The notes below the pieces were generated by a model. It was not told the origin of the DNA. It did no database searches and worked only from the letters and a program-made list of their open reading frames with translations. Below, one piece after another: positions 7,500 through 40,021 of a DNA stretch of 64,000 nt (positions are counted from its first letter, which is position 1; each line of letters starts with the position of its first letter). A program made the position numbers and the translations under genes. The stretch comes from Streptococcus sp. X13SY08 (GTDB lineage Bacteria; Bacillota; Bacilli; Lactobacillales; Streptococcaceae), in assembly GCF_001182825.2 (NCBI RefSeq), contig NZ_LFYO02000002.1, positions 496,001 to 560,000 on the forward strand. Reading direction: 5' to 3'.

Positions 7500-7570
7500 T
7501 TAAAAAGTCTAGGAATTGACTTTTTAAAGCCGGAGATAGAGAGAACGTTCGTTCTCTTCCACTCAACCAG

Positions 7571-8410
7571 TTAAATCGCCAAGTCAAATTTTAATTGCGG
7601 TTTGACTGGTTGATAATCCAATAATTCAAAATCTTCCGCTTGGATATCAAAGAAATTGGTCCCATCTGGAACGTTCAATACCAAGCGTGGCTCAATATCC
7701 GACGGAGTTCGTGACAATAACTCCTTGGCTTGCTCAAACTGATTATCGTAAATATGAAGGTTATTAACGAAATAGAAAAATTTCCCAACTATCCAGCCAA
7801 AATGCTTAGCAATCATCATCTGCAAGGCAACATACTGCATAGCATTGATGTGGTGTGCCACTAGCATGTCATTGGAACGTTGTGTCAGAGTCGCATCAAG
7901 GTAAATTTCTTCATCTACTCGACGCACGTCAAACATGGTCTGAAAGGCACATGGTAAAAGACCACCTGTGGCATCAAATGCCTCATAATCCCAAAGTGAA
8001 ATGATATTGCGACGATTCCATGGATTTTCCTCGAGTTGTTTGAGAATTTTGGTGATAATATCATGCTTTTTAACAACGGCACCATAACGCTCACCGATAG
8101 TTCGTGTACCGTCGACTTCCCACTCATTCCAATAATGTACATTATATTTGTCTTCCAACAAATCAAGGCTATTAGACTGATCTTGATAAATCCATAGCAT
8201 TTCCTTGATGGCGGATTTGATAGGGATAGGACGAAGAGTTGTAATCGGAAACTCACCTTTTGACAGGTCATATTCTGCAAAAACACCTGTCACATACTTA
8301 GAATTGGCAACATTTCCATCTTTGTAACGTGGACGAGCATTTTCCGAAAAAACACCCTCTTCTAAAATACGTGTAATATTCTTTTTAAAAATTGCATCTG
8401 CTTTTGTCAT
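7571..8410 (-). CDS. thyA: Thymidylate synthase
   Basis: Methylates dUMP to dTMP using methylenetetrahydrofolate. The 279-residue protein is full length, with the N-terminal folate/phosphate region, the active site [11 protein letters not shown] (catalytic Cys about residue 151), [22 protein letters not shown] with the phosphate-binding Arg, and the typical end [15 protein letters not shown]. It lies upstream of folA, forming a folate-nucleotide pair. The diverged 3' copy downstream suggests this gene replaced an older allele. Confidence 0.96.
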
Positions 8411-12049: not shown

Positions 12050-13869
12050 CTAGACAGTCTTTTCGTTCAAATATTCATAGCGCTCATATTTTTCAAGTAG
12101 GGCATCATTTTTTTCATCCAACTCTTTTTGCAAAGCAGATAGACGCGAGAAATCACTGCCACATGTCAGCATCTCCTCCTGAATAACCTCAATTCGGTCC
12201 TCCAAAACAGCTATGTCTTCTTCAATAGTCGCCCACTCTCGCTTCTCAAAATAGGACATACGCTCTTTAGATTTTTCTTCTCGAACTCGTTTTGTCTTTT
12301 CTTTTTTCTTTTCTTGAGAAATGACTGCGCTCGAAGCCAGAAAGGTTTTTTCATCCAGATAATCTGTGTAGTTTCCAAAGAACTCTCGAATTTTCCCATC
12401 TTCAAAAGCCAGAATTTTCGTTGCAATTTTATCCAAGAAATAGCGGTCGTGGCTAACGGTAATAACGGGACCGGCAAATCCCTGCAAGAAATGTTCCAGT
12501 ACCGTCAAAGTTGCAATATCCAAATCATTGGTCGGCTCATCTAAGAGCAAGACATTCGGCCGCTCCAGCAATAATTTGAGAAGGTAAAGCCTTTTTTTCT
12601 CACCACCAGATAATTTTTCAATCAAGGTTCCGTGCGTATTTCTTGGGAAGAGAAATTGTTCCAAGAGTTCTGCAATTGAAACCATACCAGAAGTTGTATG
12701 GGCTTCTTCTGCCACTTCCTGAAGGAAATTGATAACCCGTTTCTTCTCGTCCAATCCACGAATATCCTGCGAGAAATAGGCAATTTTTACGGTTTCACCG
12801 ACAGCCACCACCCCTCTATCAGGCTGCAGTTCTCCTGCAATCAAATTGAGCAAGATAGATTTTCCCATACCGTTGTCGCCGACAATACCAATGCGATCCT
12901 TATTTTGCACTAAAAGATTGAAATCGTTCAGAATTGGCTTATCGGGATAGGAAAAAGATACATTTTCGAAAGAAATCACCTTTTTTCCGATACGACTCGT
13001 TTCAAAATTCATTTCTAAAGAATCATCTGAAACGGTCTGATGAACATCCGCTTTTAAATCATGGAAACGATTGATGCGGGCTTGCTGCTTAGTTGCCCGC
13101 GCTTGTGGCTGACGACGCATCCAAGATAATTCTTGTTTGTAGAGTTGCTCTTTTTTGTGGCGCAAAACTGCATCTCGTTCATCTTGTTCAGCTTTTAAGC
13201 GAACATAATCCTGATAATTCCCCTGATATTCAATCAAGCTAGCGCGATCCAATTCAAAAATTCGCGTTGCCACATTATCTAAGAAATAACGATCGTGAGT
13301 AATAAAAAGCACTGTCTTCTTAGAATTTTTCAGGAAATGTTGCAACCACTCAATGGTATCAATATCCAGATGGTTGGTTGGCTCATCCAAGAGTAAGAGA
13401 TCATCATCCCCTAAAAGTGTTTGTGCCAACTGTACCCGTCGGCGCAAACCACCCGATAAATCCCCAACTTTTCGAGTGACATCCGTCAAACCCAATTTAG
13501 ACAGGACTGTTTTAACCTGACTTTCAATTTCCCAAGCATTGAGAGCATCCATCTCAGCCATCACTCTTTCATGAGCTGAATTTCACGCAAATCAGATGAC
13601 AAAACAGCATCTAAGATAGTATGTGATTCATCAAAATCAGGTTCCTGCGTCAGATAGGCCATCTTGTAATCATTTTTAGCAGAAAAAGGGGGCACATCAC
13701 CATCAAATCCAAGACGACCTGATAGGACGTCCAAGAGAGTTGTTTTCCCCGTACCATTGACACCGATAATCCCAATCCGATCGCCTTCATGGATAATAAA
13801 GGAAAGATCAGAAAAGACCGTCTTATCTCCAACAGATTTACTCAACTTTTCAACAATAAAATCACTCAT
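12050..13869 (-). pseudogene. ABC-F family ATPase (ribosome-associated), internal deletion
   Basis: A soluble protein with two ATPase domains. Domain 1 has GVNGTGKTT, LSGGLRRRVQLAQ and LLLLDEPTNHLD; the linker is rich in Arg/Lys; domain 2 has GDNGMGKS, LSGGEKKRLYLLK and VLLLDEPTNDLD. A C-terminal coiled coil (VLEDRIEVIQEEM...ALQKELDEKND) follows. Such proteins act on stalled or assembling ribosomes; some give antibiotic protection, but nothing shows that here. After SSDLREIQLMKE at about 13561 the frame breaks and resumes at MAEMDALNAWEIES. Roughly 20 residues appear to be missing. Confidence 0.85.
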
Positions 13870-19738: not shown

Positions 19739-20485
19739 CCTTCCATTACCCTCGTTTTCTTCTTTAATTTTTTAAGCAAATTAGATTCTGATGAGCTCGT
19801 GCTCGTAATCAAGTGAACTTTAGTAACAGGCGCTACTTTGACAAATGAATAGGCACCGATTTTTGATTGATCCACCAAGATGTAAGCATCTTTAGAATTA
19901 TCAATCACCGTCTGCTTGATGGCTGCTTCTTCGACATCAGGCGTTTTAAGGTAATGTTCATCCACCCCATTCATCCCCCAAAATGCCTTGTCAAAATTCA
20001 ATTGACGTAGTTGTTGAACAGCTACTGCCCCAACAGATGCATCCGTAGATTGCTTGACCGCTCCACCAATGATAATGGTTGGGATTCTTTGTTCCACCAA
20101 TTTGGTGGCATGGTGAATAGAATTCGTTACAACCGTTTATTCGTCTTCCGACCAAACCAGTAATCAGCATCTCTGTTGTCGTCCCAGCATCCAAAAAAAT
20201 CACATCGCCCTCTTCCACAAGTTGGCAGGCAAGTTCAGCTAATCGGCTTTTTTCTTGCACGTTTTTGACAGATTTTTGCTCAATAGATTCTTCTATTTGC
20301 AGATGAGATAAGCTTTCGACTCCGCCATGAACCCGTCTGAGACGACCACGGGCCTCTAGCTCATCTAAATCCCTTCGGATTGTGGATTCGGAAGTGTGCA
20401 ACAATGCTACCAAATCTTCTAGTTTGACAAAAGTATCAGATTTCACTTTTTCCAATATGATTTGCTTGCGTTCTGATTTTAAAAT
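19735..20485 (-). pseudogene. fruR: DeoR-family fructose operon repressor, frameshifted, start codon altered
   Basis: A DeoR-type repressor that senses fructose-1-phosphate. The winged helix is clear (LVALLHTSESTIRRDLDELEARGRLRRVHGG) and the sensor domain follows (EEGDVIFLDAGTTTEML). After a GGAGGTGG site the expected start codon reads ATT (20485-20483) before LKSERKQIILEKV; a TTG 30 bases on is the next possible start. Near 20130 one extra A shifts the frame; the rest reads TVVTNSIHHATKLVEQRIPTIIIGGAVK to the normal end. Both changes look minor, so the gene is probably functional in the organism. Confidence 0.85.
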
Positions 20486-21893: not shown

Positions 21894-22619
21894 TTAGTTC
21901 AAACTTTCTTCTTTTATTTTTTCAAATAGCAGAGCTTCTTCCTCTGTAAAGTTGTAATGTTCTAGCAGGTCTGGACGACGCTTATAGGTCTTACGCAAAC
22001 TTTCTTCCAAACGCCATTTTCGAATATTTTCATGATGACCACTCATCAAAACATCCGGCACAAGCATACCGCGAAAATCATAGGGACGCGTGTATTGAGG
22101 ATATTCCAAAAGTCCTGATGAAAAACTATCATCCCGATGACTGACTTCCTTACCAATGACTTCTGGAATCAGACGAACGGTCGCATCCACCATGGTCATG
22201 GCAGCCAGTTCGCCCCCCGTCAAGACAAAGTCTCCTAAGGAAATCTCATCCGTTACCAGCGTTTTTATTCGTTCGTCGTAGCCCTCGTAGTGTCCACAGA
22301 TGAAAATGAGTTCTTCTTCCTGCGCCAATTCTTCCGCATAGCTTTGGTCAAAAGTACGACCAGCTGGATCCAGCAAGATAACGCGAGGATTCTTGGCATC
22401 TATTTGTTCAATAGTATCGAAAATGGGCTGCGCGCGCAACAACATACCTTGACCACCACCATATGGTTCATCATCTACATGGCGAGCCTTCTCTGCATGT
22501 TCACGAAAATTATGGTAATTGATGTCTAGCAACCCTTTTTCTTTTGCCTTTCCCACAATAGAATGCTCCAGAGGGGCAAACATCTCCGGAAAGAGCGTCA
22601 GAATATCAATTTTCATCAT
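21894..22619 (-). CDS. trmD: tRNA (guanine-N1)-methyltransferase
   Basis: Makes m1G37 in tRNAs that read CNN/CGG-type codons, preventing +1 slippage. The 241 residues start [13 protein letters not shown] and carry the SPOUT knot motif [13 protein letters not shown] and [13 protein letters not shown]. The gene overlaps rimM by 14 bases and follows it as in most Firmicutes. Confidence 0.96.
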
Positions 22620-23124
22620 CTAATCCTTCCAAAAGCTCTACATCCACACGATTACCAGTCACGTCAACATTAAGAACCACTGGCGGAATATAAGGCAAGA
22701 GCAGATCTTTCTTCCCTTTACGTTTGACTACCCAAACATCGTTGGCACCAGGTTGGAGAATTTCCTTAATCTGCCCGATAAGAACATCACCTTCATAGAC
22801 ATCAAGTCCAATAATCTCGTGGTAGTAAAATTCATCCTCATCCAAATCAGACAAATCTTCCTCCGCGACTTTGAGAGACATCCCCTTGTATTTCTCTACA
22901 TCATTGATATGGTAAAGCCCCTTAAACTTGACAATATCAAAATTCTTCTGTTTTCGATGGGTAGCGACTTCTACTTCCATAACAAACTGGTCTTTGGCAT
23001 CGAAAATAGACAGCTTACTCCCTTTTTTAAAACGCTCTTCTGTAAAATCCGTCACACTCATGACCCGCAATTCCCCATGCAGTCCTTGCGTATTGACGAT
23101 TTTTCCCACATTAAAATAATTCAT
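22606..23124 (-). CDS. rimM: Ribosome maturation factor RimM
   Basis: A 172-residue 16S maturation factor that binds S19. It has the N-terminal [15 protein letters not shown] barrel and the C-terminal PRC-like region ([44 protein letters not shown]). It is usually preceded by khpA; here a surface-protein gene and a terminator lie between. Confidence 0.95.
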
Positions 23125-23264: not shown

Positions 23265-24160
23265 TTATTTTTTGAGCATACCTTTTGCTCGAAGGGAAAG
23301 CATAAAGCCTACCACGCTTGCTAAAGTAATTCCTAAAAGATTCCAGACAACAGATGTCGTTTCACCTGTTGATGGCAATGCTTTCTTTCCATCTTTTGGT
23401 GTGACTTTAGTAGCGGTTGCGGAAGCAGCATTTGCGCTAGCTTTTTCCTCTGAAGCTTCTACCTTATCGGCTGAGTCAATGTCAGATTTACTGTCTTTGT
23501 CCTCAGATTTAGCTAGGATTTGGTCCGCTTTCAAATAAGCGCTGATGTCATCACCAGGCATGATTTGCCCGAGTGCTTTGTTATTGACTTCGTAAGTATA
23601 GAATGTACCGTCCATCAATTCTTTTGTAAACTTGGCAACACCATCCACACCCGTTGTAATGGTTTCTATCACGCGACCATTTTGAGTTTTCAAGGTAACT
23701 GTTTGATCTTTGAGAGGTTCACCATCTTCATTTCGCACAGTAATAATAGCTGCTTGTTTGCTATAAGTAGGATTGCCTACACCTTGACCTTTTGCGGTGA
23801 AGCTAGCAAATAATTGACTACCAGCTTCGCTAGTTCTTAGGGTGTAACCCTGTACAATACCATTCACTGTAACACTAATACTGTGATTAGTTGGAAGTGC
23901 GGAAAAGACTGCTTGTCCCTTGTCATTAGTCGTCACAGTTTCAATCGGTTGATTTCCACTAGTAGTATCTGAAACAAGCACAGACTTACCTGCAAGAGCC
24001 AGACTATTTTCATCAACAACTGTTGCTACAAAACGGAATGTCCCAGTCGTTTCTGAAACTGCAGGTGTCTCCGCAGCGATAACGGTAGGCTGTCTACGAC
24101 TGTCAAAGATGCTGCCATCAATACAGAACTTGCTGCTAAAGCAATATGAGATTTTTTCAC
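23265..24160 (-). pseudogene. LPXTG cell-wall-anchored surface protein with Cna/SpaA-like repeats, frameshifted; zinc-box controlled
   Basis: A GTG start at 24160 gives a signal peptide (VKKSHIALAASSVLMAASLTVV). Near 24090 the frame shifts by one base; the other frame continues PTVIAAETPAVSETTGTFRFVATVVDENSLALAGKSVLVSDTTSG. Two Ig-like segments with the pattern of Cna B/SpaA domains follow (TTNDKGQAVFSALPTNHSISVTV; TTGVDGVAKFTKELMDGTFYTYEV). Then come an acidic, Ala/Ser-rich spacer and the sorting signal LPSTG, a hydrophobic stretch and a basic tail (RAKGMLKK). About 298 residues in all. It should be attached to peptidoglycan by sortase A. Two AdcR-type boxes sit in its 5' region. Function is unknown; adhesion or zinc-limited surface roles are guesses. 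Confidence 0.82.
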
Positions 24161-24177
24161 TTTTGTACCCCTTTTAT

Positions 24178-24218
24178 TTAACTAGTTAATTAAGTGCGCA
24201 AAATAATTAACCGGTTAA
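24178..24218 (-). promoter_or_regulatory. Two AdcR-type zinc boxes upstream of the LPXTG gene
   Basis: TTAACTAGTTAA (24178-24189) and TTAACCGGTTAA (24207-24218) are perfect palindromes matching the AdcR consensus TTAACYRGTTAA, with centres 29 bases apart. They lie just downstream of the predicted promoter, where zinc-loaded AdcR would repress. AdcR controls zinc uptake and some surface proteins in streptococci. Confidence 0.8.
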
Positions 24219-24230
24219 GGTTATAGAATG

Positions 24231-24259
24231 AGTTTAACAAGGACAAAAGGAAATGTCAA
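24231..24259 (-). promoter_or_regulatory. Promoter of the LPXTG gene
   Basis: TTGACA (24259-24254) and TAAACT (24236-24231) with a 17-base spacer. The first AdcR box begins 12 bases after the -10. Confidence 0.7.
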
Positions 24260-24303: not shown

Positions 24304-24333
24304 ATCAAAAAAAGCCAAGACGAATCTCAGCTT
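24304..24333 (-). terminator. Terminator after khpA
   Basis: A nine-base-pair stem (24312-24320 with 24325-24333) closed by a UUCG tetraloop on the minus strand and followed by TTTTTTT. It ends the rpsP-khpA transcript before the LPXTG gene. Confidence 0.85.
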
Positions 24334-24338
24334 CTCCT

Positions 24339-24578
24339 TTATTTTTCATCAATCACAAGACGTACTTTTTTATCATTTGTAGGGACAGAATAAACAATCG
24401 TACGAATCGCAGAAATGGTACGACCTTTCCGACCGATTACACGACCGATATCAGACTGATCCAAGTCCAAATGGTACTCCAAGAATTCAGGTGTATCAAC
24501 GATTTTAATCGTCAAGCTATCTGGCTGTGAAATCAATGGTTTCACAATGGCGATAATAAGATTTTCAATCATGTCCAT
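24339..24578 (-). CDS. khpA: KH-domain RNA-binding protein KhpA
   Basis: A 79-residue single KH-domain protein (YlqC family) with the RNA-contact loop [12 protein letters not shown] near residue 47. In streptococci KhpA pairs with KhpB/EloR and affects cell division and elongation. It follows rpsP as expected. The ATG at 24578 (MDMIENLI) is used; a start two codons on is also possible. Confidence 0.93.
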
Positions 24579-24606: not shown

Positions 24607-24879
24607 TTATTTAGAAAATTTAGCGTCGTGGAATTTTTTCAATACGCCTTCTTTTGAAAGGATGTTGCGAACTGTATCAGATGGTTGTGCACCTTTAGCC
24701 AACCAGTCAAGGATACGATCTTCTTTCAATGTTACTTGATTTTCAGCAACAAGTGGGTTGTAAGTTCCAATTGTTTCGATGAAACGACCATCACGTGGTG
24801 CACGTGAGTCTGCAATGTTGATACGGTAGAAAGGTTTTTTCTTAGAACCCATACGAGTCAAACGGATTTTTACTGCCAT
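24607..24879 (-). CDS. rpsP: 30S ribosomal protein S16
   Basis: A 90-residue protein starting [35 protein letters not shown], the S16 signature, and of normal length. It is first in the rpsP-khpA unit with a strong promoter upstream. Intact. Confidence 0.97.
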
Positions 24880-30436: not shown

Positions 30437-33400
30437 CTAAATAGCCTGTGTAGTGAATCCGCGGCTCTCAATCACCTTGAGCATGGCTTCTGCCGTATCC
30501 AGTGCTGTAAAGAGTGGTACACCCTGTTCAATAGCAGAGCTGCGAATGATTCGGCCATCCCGATCCGTTGTTCGCTTGGTACCGACTGTATTTACAACGG
30601 CTTGTATTTGACCGCTACGCACCAAATGGGGAATATCATTGGTAGTCTCCCCGATTTTTCCAACCAGGCGAGTATCCAAACCATTCTTCGAAAAAAATTT
30701 AGCTGTCCCTTCTGTCGCAAGAACGCTATAGCCGATAGCATCGAAACGTTTGGCTAAAGCGAGTGCTTCTACTTTACTGTCATCAGCGATGGTAAAGACT
30801 ATATTTCCGTAGTCAGATAAGTGAAAATAGCTAGCTTCAAAAGCCTTGTAAAGAGCTTTTTCTAGCGTAAGATCTGAACCCATGACTTCACCAGTCGATT
30901 TCATTTCAGGACCAAGGAGACTATCTACCTTTGCTAACTTGGAGAAGGAGAAGACAGGGGCTTTCACGTGTACTTGACTAGATTCAGGATAAAGTCCGTC
31001 TTCATAACCTTGCTCAGCTAAGGATTTGCCCAAGATGAGATTTGTGGCTACTTGTGCCATTGGAATGTTGGTTACTTTAGATAAGAAAGGTACGGTCCGA
31101 CTAGCACGAGAATTAACCTCAATGACATAGACTGTCTCTTCCTTAATGACAAATTGAATATTCATCATACCGATGCAATTTAGACCGATCGCCAAGCGCT
31201 TGGTGTAATCCGCAATAGTGGCTTGCACCTTAGCTGACAAACTTTGTGGCGGATAAACAGCCATAGAGTCACCCGAGTGCACACCTGCACGCTCAATATG
31301 TTCCATAATTCCTGGAATGAGAACGTCCTTCCCGTCTGAAATAACATCCACTTCACACTCACCTCCTACGATGTAGGAATCAATAAGAACGGGATGCTCT
31401 GGGCTAGCTTTCACCGCAGTGTGCATATAAGAACGGAGATCCTCTTCATTTTCAAGGATTTCCATAGCGCGACCACCCAAGACATACGAGGGACGTACCA
31501 AGACTGGGAACCCAATCTTAGAACTTTAAGGGCTTTTTCAAAGAGATTGCGGTCTTCAGCACGGTCTAGGTCCGACACCTGCGTACCTAGAATTGTGACA
31601 CCTGCATTTGCCAAGCTTTCTGCCAAGTTAATAGCTGTTTGACCACCAAATTGAACCACTACTCCTTTTGGCTGCTCCAATTCGATCACATTCATAACAT
31701 CTTCAAAAGTTAGTGGCTCAAAGTAGAGTTTGTCGGATACAGAAAAATCTGTTGAAACTGTCTCAGGGTTTGAGTTCATGATAATAGCTTCATAGCCTGC
31801 TGCCTGTATCGCTTTAACCGAGTGAACTGTGGCGTAGTCAAATTCAACACCTTGACCAATACGAATCGGTCCAGAACCAAGAACTAGTATAGATTCTTTT
31901 TCTGAACGAATAGATTCATTTTCCCACTCGTAGGTTGAGTAAAAATAGGGGGTCGTGGATTCAAACTCAGCAGCACAAGTATCCACCATCTTGTAGACCG
32001 GAAGAATCTTATTTTCCCTACGAAGTTTACGAATAGCTTCCGTTGTCCTATTCCAAAGCTCAGCAATTTGACGATCTGAAAAGCCATTCCGCTTAGCTTC
32101 TTTGAGAAGCTCTAAATCTCCAACGGAATTTTTCAAGTCTTCTTCTATTTCAAAAATATGAAGCAATTTATCAAGGAAAAAGATATCAATCTTAGTCAGC
32201 TCTGCTATTTCTTCAATGGTAAATCCACGGCGGATAGCCTCTGACACATAGAAGAGTCGGTCGTCTTGAGCCTTAACGATTTTCTCAAACAGCTGGTCGT
32301 CGGTTGCCCCCTTCAGTTCTAGCATTTCGTTGTGGTAAATGCCAATTTCAAGAGAACGACAGGCCTTGAGGAGAACCTCCTCGATGTTACGACCGATAGC
32401 CATAACCTCGCCCGTTGCCTTCATTTGCGTCCCAAGACGACGTTCGCCATGCTCGAATTTGTCAAACGGGAAGCGTGGAATCTTTGCCACTACATAGTCC
32501 AAGGCAGGCTCAAACATGGCGTAAGTGGTTCCTGTGACAGGGTTAATCATCTCATCAAGCGTGAGCCCGACAGCTATTTTGGCAGCTATTTTAGCGATTG
32601 GGTATCCTGTCGCTTTTGAGGCAAGAGCAGAGCTTCGAGACACACGAGGATTAACCTCGATGACATAGTATTTAAAACTATTGGGATCAAGCGCCAGCTG
32701 AACATTACAGCCCCCCTCGATTTTAAGAGCTCGAATGATTTTCAAACTGGCGTCTCGGAGTATTTGATGTTCGACATCAGATAGCGTCTGTGTCGGTGCA
32801 AATACAATAGAATCGCCCGTGTGAATTCCCACCGGATCAAAGTTTTCCATGGTGCAGACTACCAGCGCATTGTCAGCCGCATCTCGCATGACTTCGTATT
32901 CAATTTCCTTGAAACCAGCGATGGACCGCTCAATCAAACATTGAATCACAGGCGACAATTTCAATCCATTTTCAGCAATTTCACGTAACTCATTTTCGTT
33001 GGCACATATTCCTCCACCGGTTCCACCAAGAGTAAAAGCAGGACGAACAATGACAGGATAGCCGATTCCCACTGCAAAGGCAAGAGCTTCTTCAACCGTA
33101 TTTACGATTTTAGATTCAGGAATAGGCTGCTCCAAATCTTCCATCAGTTGTTTGAAGAGGTCACGATCTTCTGCCTGATTAATAGCAGACAATTTGGTTC
33201 CTAAGAGCTCAATACCAAGCTCATCCAGAATCCCTATCTTTGATAATTCCATCGCCATGTTGAGACCCGTTTGTCCACCAAGTGTAGGTAATAGAGCGTC
33301 TGGGCGCTCCTTGCGCAAGATGCGAATCACAAACTCCAGCGTGATAGGCTCAATATAAACCTTATCCGCAATTTCTTTATCCGTCATAATGGTAGCTGGA

Positions 33401-33549
33401 TTGGAGTTGAGAAGAACAACGCTGTATCCCTCCTCTTTCAAGGCAAGACAAGCCTGAGTTCCCGCGTAATCAAATTCCGCTGCCTGTCCAATAACAATCG
33501 GACCAGACCCAATCACCATAATTTTTTTAATATCAGAACGTTTTGGCAT
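30437..33549 (-). pseudogene. carB: Carbamoyl-phosphate synthase large subunit, internal deletion
   Basis: CarB makes carbamoyl phosphate for pyrimidines and arginine. The true start is 33549 ([30 protein letters not shown]). The first synthetase half and the start of the second ([30 protein letters not shown]) are intact. Near 31530, after NLFEKALK, the sequence jumps to a segment encoding [20 protein letters not shown] in another frame, losing about 20-25 residues. The C-terminal allosteric domain ([17 protein letters not shown]) is present. The expected length is about 1060 residues. Probably an error or a small real deletion; the gene cannot function as written. Confidence 0.9.
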
Positions 33550-39176: not shown

Positions 39177-40021
39177 TTATCCTTTTTTCTTATCAAAATA
39201 TGCTTGCATAACATCTATAAAATCTTGTGCACACGGACTCAAGTCTGTATCTTCACGTTTTACGTATACCATTCGATTTTCCATGTCATCTTTAAGCGGA
39301 ACAACGGTAATCCCATGCACACTCTCACTATCAAGAAAGCCAGAACCTGTCGCATAGGCATCTGTGCGCTCTAAGATACCATTCAAAGTAGCACGGTCCG
39401 TCACATCGTAGGTCACCGAAGAGTCCGATGTATCAAAGAAATTCTCCGAATAATAAAGATACTCTTCTTTCTCTTGCGTAAATCGAACCGTTGGCAAACC
39501 TACTAAGTCTTGATATTCAATCCTTTCACTTGCAGATGCAACTTGTCTAACTTTTGCATAATCCCTTTGACATTGCGCGCATTGAGATAAATAATACCAA
39601 TCTCACTATGTCCCTGCGATACTTCATCTAAAATCTGCACCGTTGTTGATTCAAAAATACGAAAATTTTTGTATTCAGGAAATTTTTGCGAAAACTCTGT
39701 AATCAAAGGTGGCAAAAAATCATAGTGTTGACTGGAAATAGAAAATTCTGCCCACTCTTCTTCTGGCTGGAGATAAAGATGTTCAAAGCTATCAAACCCT
39801 TTCACCAAACGCTGCGCTTTTTCATAAAATTCCATTCCACGACGCGTCAAAAAAGTTCCTGAGCTGGTCCGATTAAAAACTTTAAACCCCAATTCCTTTT
39901 CTAAATCACGCACAGAAATAGATAAACTCGGCTGAGAAACAAACATCTTTTCTGCCGCCTCACGAAAAGTCCCACTATTGGCAATGGCTACAACATACCG
40001 TAATTGCTGAATATTCATCAC
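39177..40021 (-). pseudogene. cpsY: LysR-family regulator (CpsY/MtaR-like), internal deletion
   Basis: The winged-helix N-terminus is intact (MMNIQQLRYVVAIANSGTFREAAEKMFVSQPSLSISVRDLEKELGFKVFNRTSSG). The effector domain starts normally and then breaks near 39505. After DKLHLQVKGL the sequence resumes in another frame as YQDLVGLPTVRFTQEKEEYLYYSENFF, losing about 30 residues, and ends normally. CpsY-type regulators in streptococci control methionine supply and capsule or wall traits. Directly upstream of lspA, as in other streptococci. Confidence 0.8.

What the first reader, a model, noticed from the sequence alone, without database searches (positions are those of the whole stretch)
24160..24259. 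LPXTG surface protein with two AdcR zinc boxes
Two perfect TTAACYRGTTAA palindromes 29 bases apart lie directly behind a TTGACA-17-TAAACT promoter for a wall-anchored protein with Cna/SpaA-like domains. AdcR represses zinc-uptake and some surface genes in streptococci when zinc is present. This predicts display of the protein only under zinc starvation, as in host tissue. A function in zinc acquisition or adhesion under nutritional immunity is possible.
Basis: partly seen in the sequence, partly recalled or inferred. Interest (0 to 1): 0.7.

Follow-up and report, generated by a model that had tools for sequence, protein, structure and literature searches.

The report
Zinc-repressor boxes before adhesin-like gene
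A streptococcal gene for a wall-anchored protein, whose nearest studied relative is likely the group B streptococcus adhesin FbsC, has two perfect zinc-repressor (AdcR) box sequences behind its predicted promoter, and most of its relatives have at least one, so it would be switched on only when zinc is scarce, although in this assembly its reading frame is broken.

Summary
In detail: two perfect AdcR boxes (24178-24189, 24207-24218), 29 bp centre to centre, lie between a promoter-like TTGACA-17-TAAACT and the start codon of an LPXTG protein with prealbumin/Cna-like domains. The 1.545 Mb genome has five perfect TTAACNNGTTAA sites: two here, one before adcR, one before a cysteine-free S14 gene, one at fhs. 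Of 284 genus genomes, 22 carry the family; 23 of 26 genes have a perfect box upstream. AdcR is encoded. The group B streptococcus relative, likely FbsC/BsaB, has one too, and PMC11580457 names an LPXTG protein among that species' AdcR targets. Best reading: zinc-AdcR represses an adhesin-like surface protein. Caveats: the frame is broken at the end of the signal peptide, but rpoB and rpoD are split in the same assembly, so this may be an assembly error; this copy has one module, not two, and no histidine triad; genome-wide the motif is no commoner than its backward control, so the case rests on position and conservation. Side finding: five relatives carry a Pht-like histidine-triad segment. 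Binding, induction and ligand are untested.

The parts
24231..24259 (-). predicted sigma-70 promoter TTGACA-17-TAAACT
   Evidence: 10 of 12 consensus positions, TG before second hexamer; 2 promoter-like sites found in the 301-base stretch, 0.7 expected from shuffles
24207..24218 (.). AdcR box 1, TTAACCGGTTAA, just downstream of the predicted transcription start
   Evidence: exact match; -58 relative to the start codon
24178..24189 (.). AdcR box 2, TTAACTAGTTAA, just upstream of the ribosome-binding site
   Evidence: exact match; -29 relative to the start codon
24168..24175 (-). likely ribosome-binding site AAAAGGGG
   Evidence: read from the sequence
24090..24160 (-). start codon GTG and signal-peptide frame (VKKSHIALAASSVLMAASLTVV...); lower end approximate
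   Evidence: this frame does not run on into the mature protein
23265..24070 (-). mature-protein frame: one two-domain prealbumin/Cna-like module, linker, LPSTG anchor, membrane helix (upper end approximate)
23360..23380 (-). LPSTG sorting motif (approximate position)
   Evidence: TIGR01167 21.0 bits, cut-off 15.9
24307..24338 (-). terminator-like hairpin after khpA, separating the upstream genes from this one
   Evidence: 1 found, 0.2 expected from shuffles
24371..24578 (-). khpA (KH-domain RNA-binding protein), upstream neighbour
   Evidence: PF13083 62.6 bits, cut-off 32.1
24607..24879 (-). rpsP (ribosomal protein S16)
   Evidence: PF00886
22606..23124 (-). rimM, downstream neighbour
   Evidence: PF01782
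21894..22619 (-). trmD
   Evidence: PF01746

Best explanation
The two boxes are most likely an operator at which zinc-loaded AdcR would block the predicted promoter of a sortase-anchored, adhesin-like surface protein of the FbsC-related family, so that the protein would be made only under zinc starvation. Shown: boxes, promoter-like site, LPXTG anchor, Cna/prealbumin-like module, an AdcR gene in the genome, and a perfect box before 23 of 26 family genes. Inferred: AdcR binds here; box 1, about 12 bases past the -10, and box 2, at the ribosome-binding site, stop initiation or early elongation; loss of zinc (as under host calprotectin) releases AdcR. Inferred: the protein binds a host matrix or plasma protein, as FbsC/BsaB does. 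Unsettled: whether this strain makes the protein at all, because the frame is broken in the assembly.
For: Exact boxes and promoter-like site. Five perfect TTAACNNGTTAA sites in the genome: two here, one at adcR, one 23 bases before a cysteine-free S14 gene (PF00253, 89.1 bits), one at the end of fhs. AdcR equivalog NF038251, 215.2 bits, cut-off 175. Family in 22 of 284 genus genomes at E <= 1e-20, 26 genes (at most 5 candidates a genome were scored); perfect box upstream in 23 of 26; in 20 of the 21 genes with one open frame. Background: one non-family perfect box in 257,089 bases around the gene in four relatives. In six promoters the distal box reads TTGACYRGTTAA, so that the -35 hexamer is itself half of the box, with a -10-like hexamer (4-5 of 6 matches) 17 nt on in six of six. 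21 of the 22 family genomes have AdcR. In S. agalactiae ATCC 13813 this gene alone, of 19 LPXTG hits over the cut-off, has a perfect box at its start, and PMC11580457 names an LPXTG protein (sak_RS04480) among AdcR targets (passages). In G168 the family gene lies beside a ZnuA-type zinc-uptake lipoprotein gene (254.7 bits).
Against: No binding or expression data for this gene. Frame broken. Genome-wide the box is no commoner than its backward-read control. One intact relative (G176, L055) has no box with up to one mismatch although its genome encodes AdcR. Two broken relatives keep only one-mismatch boxes (L063, L065). G072 lacks AdcR yet keeps a perfect box before its broken gene. That sak_RS04480 is this gene is an inference: the paper allowed one mismatch, and my list of one-mismatch sites in that genome was capped. 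That the group B protein is FbsC is an inference too. Control by CovR, reported for gbs0791, could dominate.
Confidence: 0.82

Rival explanations
1. Relic: the promoter and boxes survive before a dead gene, and the organism no longer makes the protein.
For: Signal-peptide and mature frames out of register; one module instead of the usual two. Broken relatives exist in G072, G151, G155 (second copy) and G166 (first copy), three of the five broken genes, this one included, keep perfect boxes, and a lineage-dependent frameshift in fbsC is reported for group B CC17 strains (PMC5861770, passages).
Against: The same assembly also splits rpoB and rpoD and 4 of 20 other window genes that had relatives in the fetched stretches, so an assembly error is at least as likely. 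Both boxes are perfect and the mature frame is open with conserved domains.
Confidence: 0.35
2. Zinc capture: the protein is a surface zinc scavenger rather than an adhesin.
For: Family-wide AdcR boxes; a Pht-like histidine-triad segment in 5 of 26 relatives and a His-rich linker between the modules of S. phocae.
Against: The window copy has no triad. In a 10-row alignment of relatives (window not included, most of the S. agalactiae rows near-identical) no His or Cys is among the invariant or nearly invariant residues.
Confidence: 0.12
3. The boxes bind another MarR-type regulator or are chance palindromes.
For: Another, weakly similar MarR-like frame occurs in the genome (E 1.3e-5); no binding test was made; the motif is not enriched genome-wide against its backward control.
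Against: Sequence and position match the published AdcR box TTAACNNGTTAA (PMC11580457, passages); other perfect sites sit at adcR and an S14 gene; a perfect box before 23 of 26 family genes.
Confidence: 0.05

Closest known systems
FbsC / BsaB of Streptococcus agalactiae (most likely the 512-aa protein P0007; that it is gbs0791 is recalled)
   Same: LPXTG anchor, Ig-like/prealbumin modules; 51% identity over 62% of the query; perfect AdcR box before the gene
   Different: one module instead of two, different genomic slot (rpsP-khpA-rimM here; release factor RF3 gene downstream in S. agalactiae), frame broken in this assembly
AdcR regulon of streptococci (Adc/Lmb permease, rpsNb, adhP; LPXTG sak_RS04480 in group B streptococcus; PMC11580457, passages)
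   Same: box sequence and its place beside the core promoter; AdcR encoded in the genome
   Different: product is an adhesin-like wall protein, not a transporter, zinc-binding lipoprotein or ribosomal protein
Pneumococcal histidine-triad proteins PhtA/PhtD
   Same: five relatives carry a YPH.DH.H-type segment; for the L060 segment the best PDB sequence match is PhtD
   Different: segment is fused to FbsC-like modules with an LPXTG anchor and stays below the Pfam cut-off for the family (13.5 bits against 27); absent from the window gene
Cna-B / SpaA prealbumin-like domains of pilins and MSCRAMMs
   Same: Pfam SpaA above cut-off; Foldseek's first matches are such proteins, with low TM-scores for the two-domain model
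   Different: no pilin gene cluster or sortase noticed among the neighbours that were identified (khpA, rpsP, rimM, trmD); isopeptide bonds not examined

Membership tests
AdcR regulon member | perfect or near-perfect TTAACNNGTTAA box at the promoter | tested here: met
   two perfect boxes
AdcR regulon member | AdcR encoded in the same genome | tested here: met
   NF038251 215.2 bits, cut-off 175
AdcR regulon member | box conserved before related genes | tested here: met
   perfect in 23 of 26 genes in 22 of 284 genomes
AdcR regulon member | zinc- and AdcR-dependent repression, AdcR binding | not testable with these tools
   bench work
FbsC/BsaB | sequence homology to the S. agalactiae protein P0007 | tested here: met
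   E 8e-77, 51% identity over 62% of the query
FbsC/BsaB | P0007 is FbsC | tested here: inconclusive
   fits the published description; no passage seen gives the sequence or locus tag of FbsC
FbsC/BsaB | two tandem Ig-like modules | tested here: not met
   one module in the window; hence 'related to', not 'is' FbsC
FbsC/BsaB | LPXTG wall anchor | tested here: met
   TIGR01167 21.0 bits, cut-off 15.9; PF00746 20.6, cut-off 20
FbsC/BsaB | fibrinogen or fibronectin binding | not testable with these tools
   bench work
Pht histidine-triad protein | HxxHxH motif | tested here: not met
   0 hits to .PH.[DN]H.H at the window locus (L017); present in 5 of 26 family loci
SpaA/Cna-B prealbumin-like domain protein | Pfam SpaA above its cut-off | tested here: met
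   32.2 bits, cut-off 23.1

The most novel reading that the evidence does not exclude
FbsC-related proteins form a genus-wide class of zinc-starvation adhesins: AdcR ties host attachment to nutritional immunity, in some promoters by making the -35 hexamer half of the operator, and several lineages have built a zinc-binding histidine-triad or His-rich linker into the adhesin in front of its last module, so that one protein both holds the host and gathers the scarce metal.
Probability: 0.35. Interest if true: 0.72.

Novelty: new member of a known kind. Interest (0 to 1): 0.5.

Why it matters
It would link a group of host-adhesion proteins to the zinc-starvation switch across a genus rather than in one species. 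It predicts when such proteins would be on the surface (calprotectin-rich tissue), which bears on how adhesins and vaccine candidates such as FbsC are assayed: ordinary zinc-rich media would keep them repressed. The histidine-triad hybrids give a direct test of whether metal capture and adhesion are joined in one molecule.

Tried and rejected
Pseudogene as a firm claim was rejected: rpoB and rpoD, which a living cell needs whole, are split over frames in the same assembly.

Near-matches in the window (11 with up to two mismatches, 11.07 expected) were rejected as noise, the pair at 7563/7602 near thyA and the dihydrofolate reductase gene included.

Zinc binding by the window protein: no motif found. 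In one search the L017 row covers only a 116-residue piece after its first Met, and nine of the 26 loci gave no row, so that table is not used as a count.

Histidine-triad segment, results against: NCBIfam gave no histidine-triad hit at E <= 0.01 for L018, L058, L059, L060; Pfam none at E <= 0.01 for the five; at E <= 1, L060 reaches Strep_his_triad with 13.5 bits (cut-off 27) and L058 does not. A protein search with that region of L018 found 3 proteins, all of the hybrid kind by their length and domains. Comparison with the 512-aa frame of the Pht-like gene gave only E 0.18 and 0.065; that frame, read from its first ATG, starts behind the triad. In one search PhtA (E 0.43) ties with an unrelated protein (E 0.44).

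SfbA and gbs0850/FbsB as the named relative were followed in papers and dropped: neither could be tied to P0007. FbsC/BsaB fits better, although PMC11576427 (passages) finds fbsC in all GBS genomes it examined, against the reports that CC17 lacks the protein. The identity FbsC = gbs0791 = this gene is recalled, not read.

The promoter alignment is anchored on the box, so its high box conservation (0.94 against 0.47 and 0.51 beside it) is built in by the choice of anchor and is not used. The 18 other anchor loci without a box are a weak control, since many need not reach their promoter. One search used a wrong reading frame and is discarded. The second fold search was filled by the prealbumin-like modules and says nothing about the histidine-triad segment. 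That FbsC and zinc control are not joined in print rests on (0 papers; 6 listed, of which I saw passages of PMC9784991 and PMC5919688 only).

Full report
What is there. On the minus strand, between khpA (24371-24578) and rimM (22606-23124), lies a gene that begins with GTG at 24160. Upstream are TTGACA (24259-24254), 17 bases and TAAACT (24236-24231), 10 of 12 consensus positions. Two exact AdcR boxes follow, TTAACCGGTTAA at 24207-24218 and TTAACTAGTTAA at 24178-24189, 29 bp centre to centre, then a likely ribosome-binding site AAAAGGGG. A terminator-like hairpin at 24307-24338 separates the gene from khpA and rpsP before it, so it probably has its own transcript. The mature frame encodes a module with SpaA (32.2 bits, cut-off 23.1) and CarboxypepD_reg (33.4, cut-off 32.3) matches and an LPXTG anchor. 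A model of it (ten-residue pLDDT means mostly 67-91 over the module, one block 54) has pilin and MSCRAMM-like proteins among the first in Foldseek's list, at low TM-scores for the two domains together.

Chance. In the 1,545,093-base genome there are five perfect TTAACNNGTTAA sites: these two; one directly before adcR, with a one-mismatch box adjoining it; one 23 bases before an S14 gene (PF00253, 89.1 bits) whose translation has no cysteine, as expected of the zinc-free form; and one at the end of fhs (named by eye), before a short membrane-peptide frame. So the other sites include two known AdcR targets. The AdcR frame is intact and passes the NCBIfam equivalog NF038251 (215.2 bits, cut-off 175). 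Against this: at two mismatches, matches in the window are no more frequent than in shuffles, and genome-wide the box is rarer than the same pattern read backwards (4 against 6; 45 against 232 with up to one mismatch). The argument therefore rests on place and conservation.

Conservation. Searched with a seven-row alignment, 22 of 284 held genus genomes carry the family at E <= 1e-20 (at most five candidates a genome were scored), with 26 genes. A perfect box lies upstream of 23 of 26: in 21 of the 22 box-bearing genes measured within 73 bases of the start codon, in L050 at -304 right behind a promoter-like site of its own. Of the three without one, two are broken genes with one-mismatch boxes (G166 first copy, L065; G155 second copy, L063) and one is intact with no box (G176, L055). 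Five of 26 are broken (G000, G072, G151, G155 second copy, G166 first copy); three of these keep perfect boxes. In 257,089 bases around the gene in four relatives there are five perfect boxes, four of them at the family gene. In six promoters the distal box reads TTGACYRGTTAA: its TTGACY is a -35 hexamer, with a -10-like hexamer (4-5 of 6 matches) 17 nt on in six of six, so operator and promoter share bases. 21 of 22 family genomes have AdcR; the exception, G072, has a broken family gene. 13 of 26 loci show rpsP or rimM beside the gene, as in the window and in S. phocae. In G168 the gene lies beside a ZnuA-type lipoprotein gene (254.7 bits).

Closest studied relative. The S. agalactiae protein P0007 (512 aa) is 51% identical over 62% of the query and has a perfect box 39-50 nt before its start. 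Of 19 LPXTG anchor hits over the cut-off in S. agalactiae ATCC 13813, it is the only one with a perfect box at its start (gene starts estimated from open frames; the list of one-mismatch sites was capped). PMC11580457 (passages) names an LPXTG protein, sak_RS04480, among new AdcR targets of that species; that it is this gene is my inference. The descriptions of FbsC/BsaB in PMC5900788, PMC5861770 and PMC9784991 (passages), an LPXTG protein with two Ig-like tandem repeats that binds fibrinogen, or fibronectin and laminin, and has a frameshift in CC17, fit P0007 and its truncated cluster P0011 (354 aa, 707 contigs). The identity FbsC = gbs0791 is recalled. gbs0791 is CovR-repressed (PMC3578759, passages) and wall-anchored, accumulating at the poles (PMC3676364, passages).

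Is the window gene alive? The signal-peptide frame and the mature frame are out of register, and there is one module, closer to module 1 of relatives by alignment score in five of five comparisons, with an end like that of module 2. But the same assembly has rpoB and rpoD split over frames, and 4 of 20 other window genes that had relatives in the fetched stretches are split too, carB among them. I therefore leave open whether the lesion is real.

Zinc in the protein. The window copy has no histidine-triad motif. Five of 26 relatives (L018, L057, L058, L059, L060) carry YPH.DH.H...ID.[TS]KPF.DG (L057 with N for the D before the second H) just before the last module. A like segment occurs in a Pht-like gene of the window's own genome (TIGR01363 34.4 bits, cut-off 33, in the neighbouring fragment), with alignment scores of 80-94 against shuffle maxima of 55-73, 0 of 5000 each. 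Among PDB sequences the L060 segment's best match is PhtD (E 3.5e-4 for the whole sequence, summed over weak repeats); PhtA follows at E 0.43, level with an unrelated protein. Family profiles do not reach their cut-offs: Strep_his_triad 13.5 bits against 27 for L060, none for L058, none in NCBIfam. S. phocae has a His-rich linker between its modules. Zinc binding by these segments is inferred from the Pht family (recalled).

Mechanism, with status. Zn-AdcR binds box 1, about 12 bases past the -10, and box 2, at the ribosome-binding site (inferred), and blocks initiation or early elongation (inferred). Under zinc starvation it leaves (stated for AdcR in PMC11580457, passages; not tested here) and the protein would be exported and anchored by sortase (predicted), to bind a host protein (inferred from FbsC). 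Zinc capture is a separate possibility for the histidine-triad relatives.

Verdict. The regulatory claim is well supported by comparison and partly anticipated in print for group B streptococcus. What is added here is its conservation across the genus, the operator built into the -35 hexamer, and the histidine-triad hybrids.

Noticed in passing
L018, L057, L058, L059, L060: FbsC-like LPXTG proteins with a built-in Pht-like histidine-triad segment before the last module.
   Followed up: partly
L092 8753-11728; L093 2230-3287: rpoB and rpoD are split over frames in the window's genome assembly, so its frameshifts are unreliable.
   Followed up: yes
window 12062-13869, 19789-20455, 30440-33549 (carB), 39195-40018: Four more genes of the window are split over two frames compared with relatives.
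   Followed up: partly
L092 902-1328 and 2159-3072: adcC and the ZnuA-type gene behind adcR are also split in this assembly, while adcR and the ABC-3 permease frame (adcB) are open.
   Followed up: partly
L001 1501-1512: A perfect AdcR box spans the stop codon of fhs (named by eye) and lies right before a short membrane-peptide frame.
   Followed up: no
L093 3761-6437: Pht-like histidine-triad gene in fragments, with a one-mismatch AdcR-like box upstream.
   Followed up: partly
L010 / genome G072: A single-contig genome without detectable AdcR keeps a perfect box before a broken family gene.
   Followed up: partly
L009, L011, L012, L018, L048, L057: AdcR-like box TTGACYRGTTAA whose first half is the -35 hexamer, with a 17-nt spacer to a -10-like hexamer.
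   Followed up: yes
L050 243-1206: In G168 the family gene lies beside a ZnuA-type lipoprotein gene (254.7 bits) with two one-mismatch boxes before it.
   Followed up: partly
G000 and G012, whole genome: The pattern read backwards (AATTGNNCAATT) is commoner than the AdcR box with up to one mismatch (232 against 45, 249 against 149); unexplained.
   Followed up: no
window 7563-7613: Two imperfect AdcR-like boxes between thyA and the dihydrofolate reductase gene; within chance expectation.
   Followed up: partly
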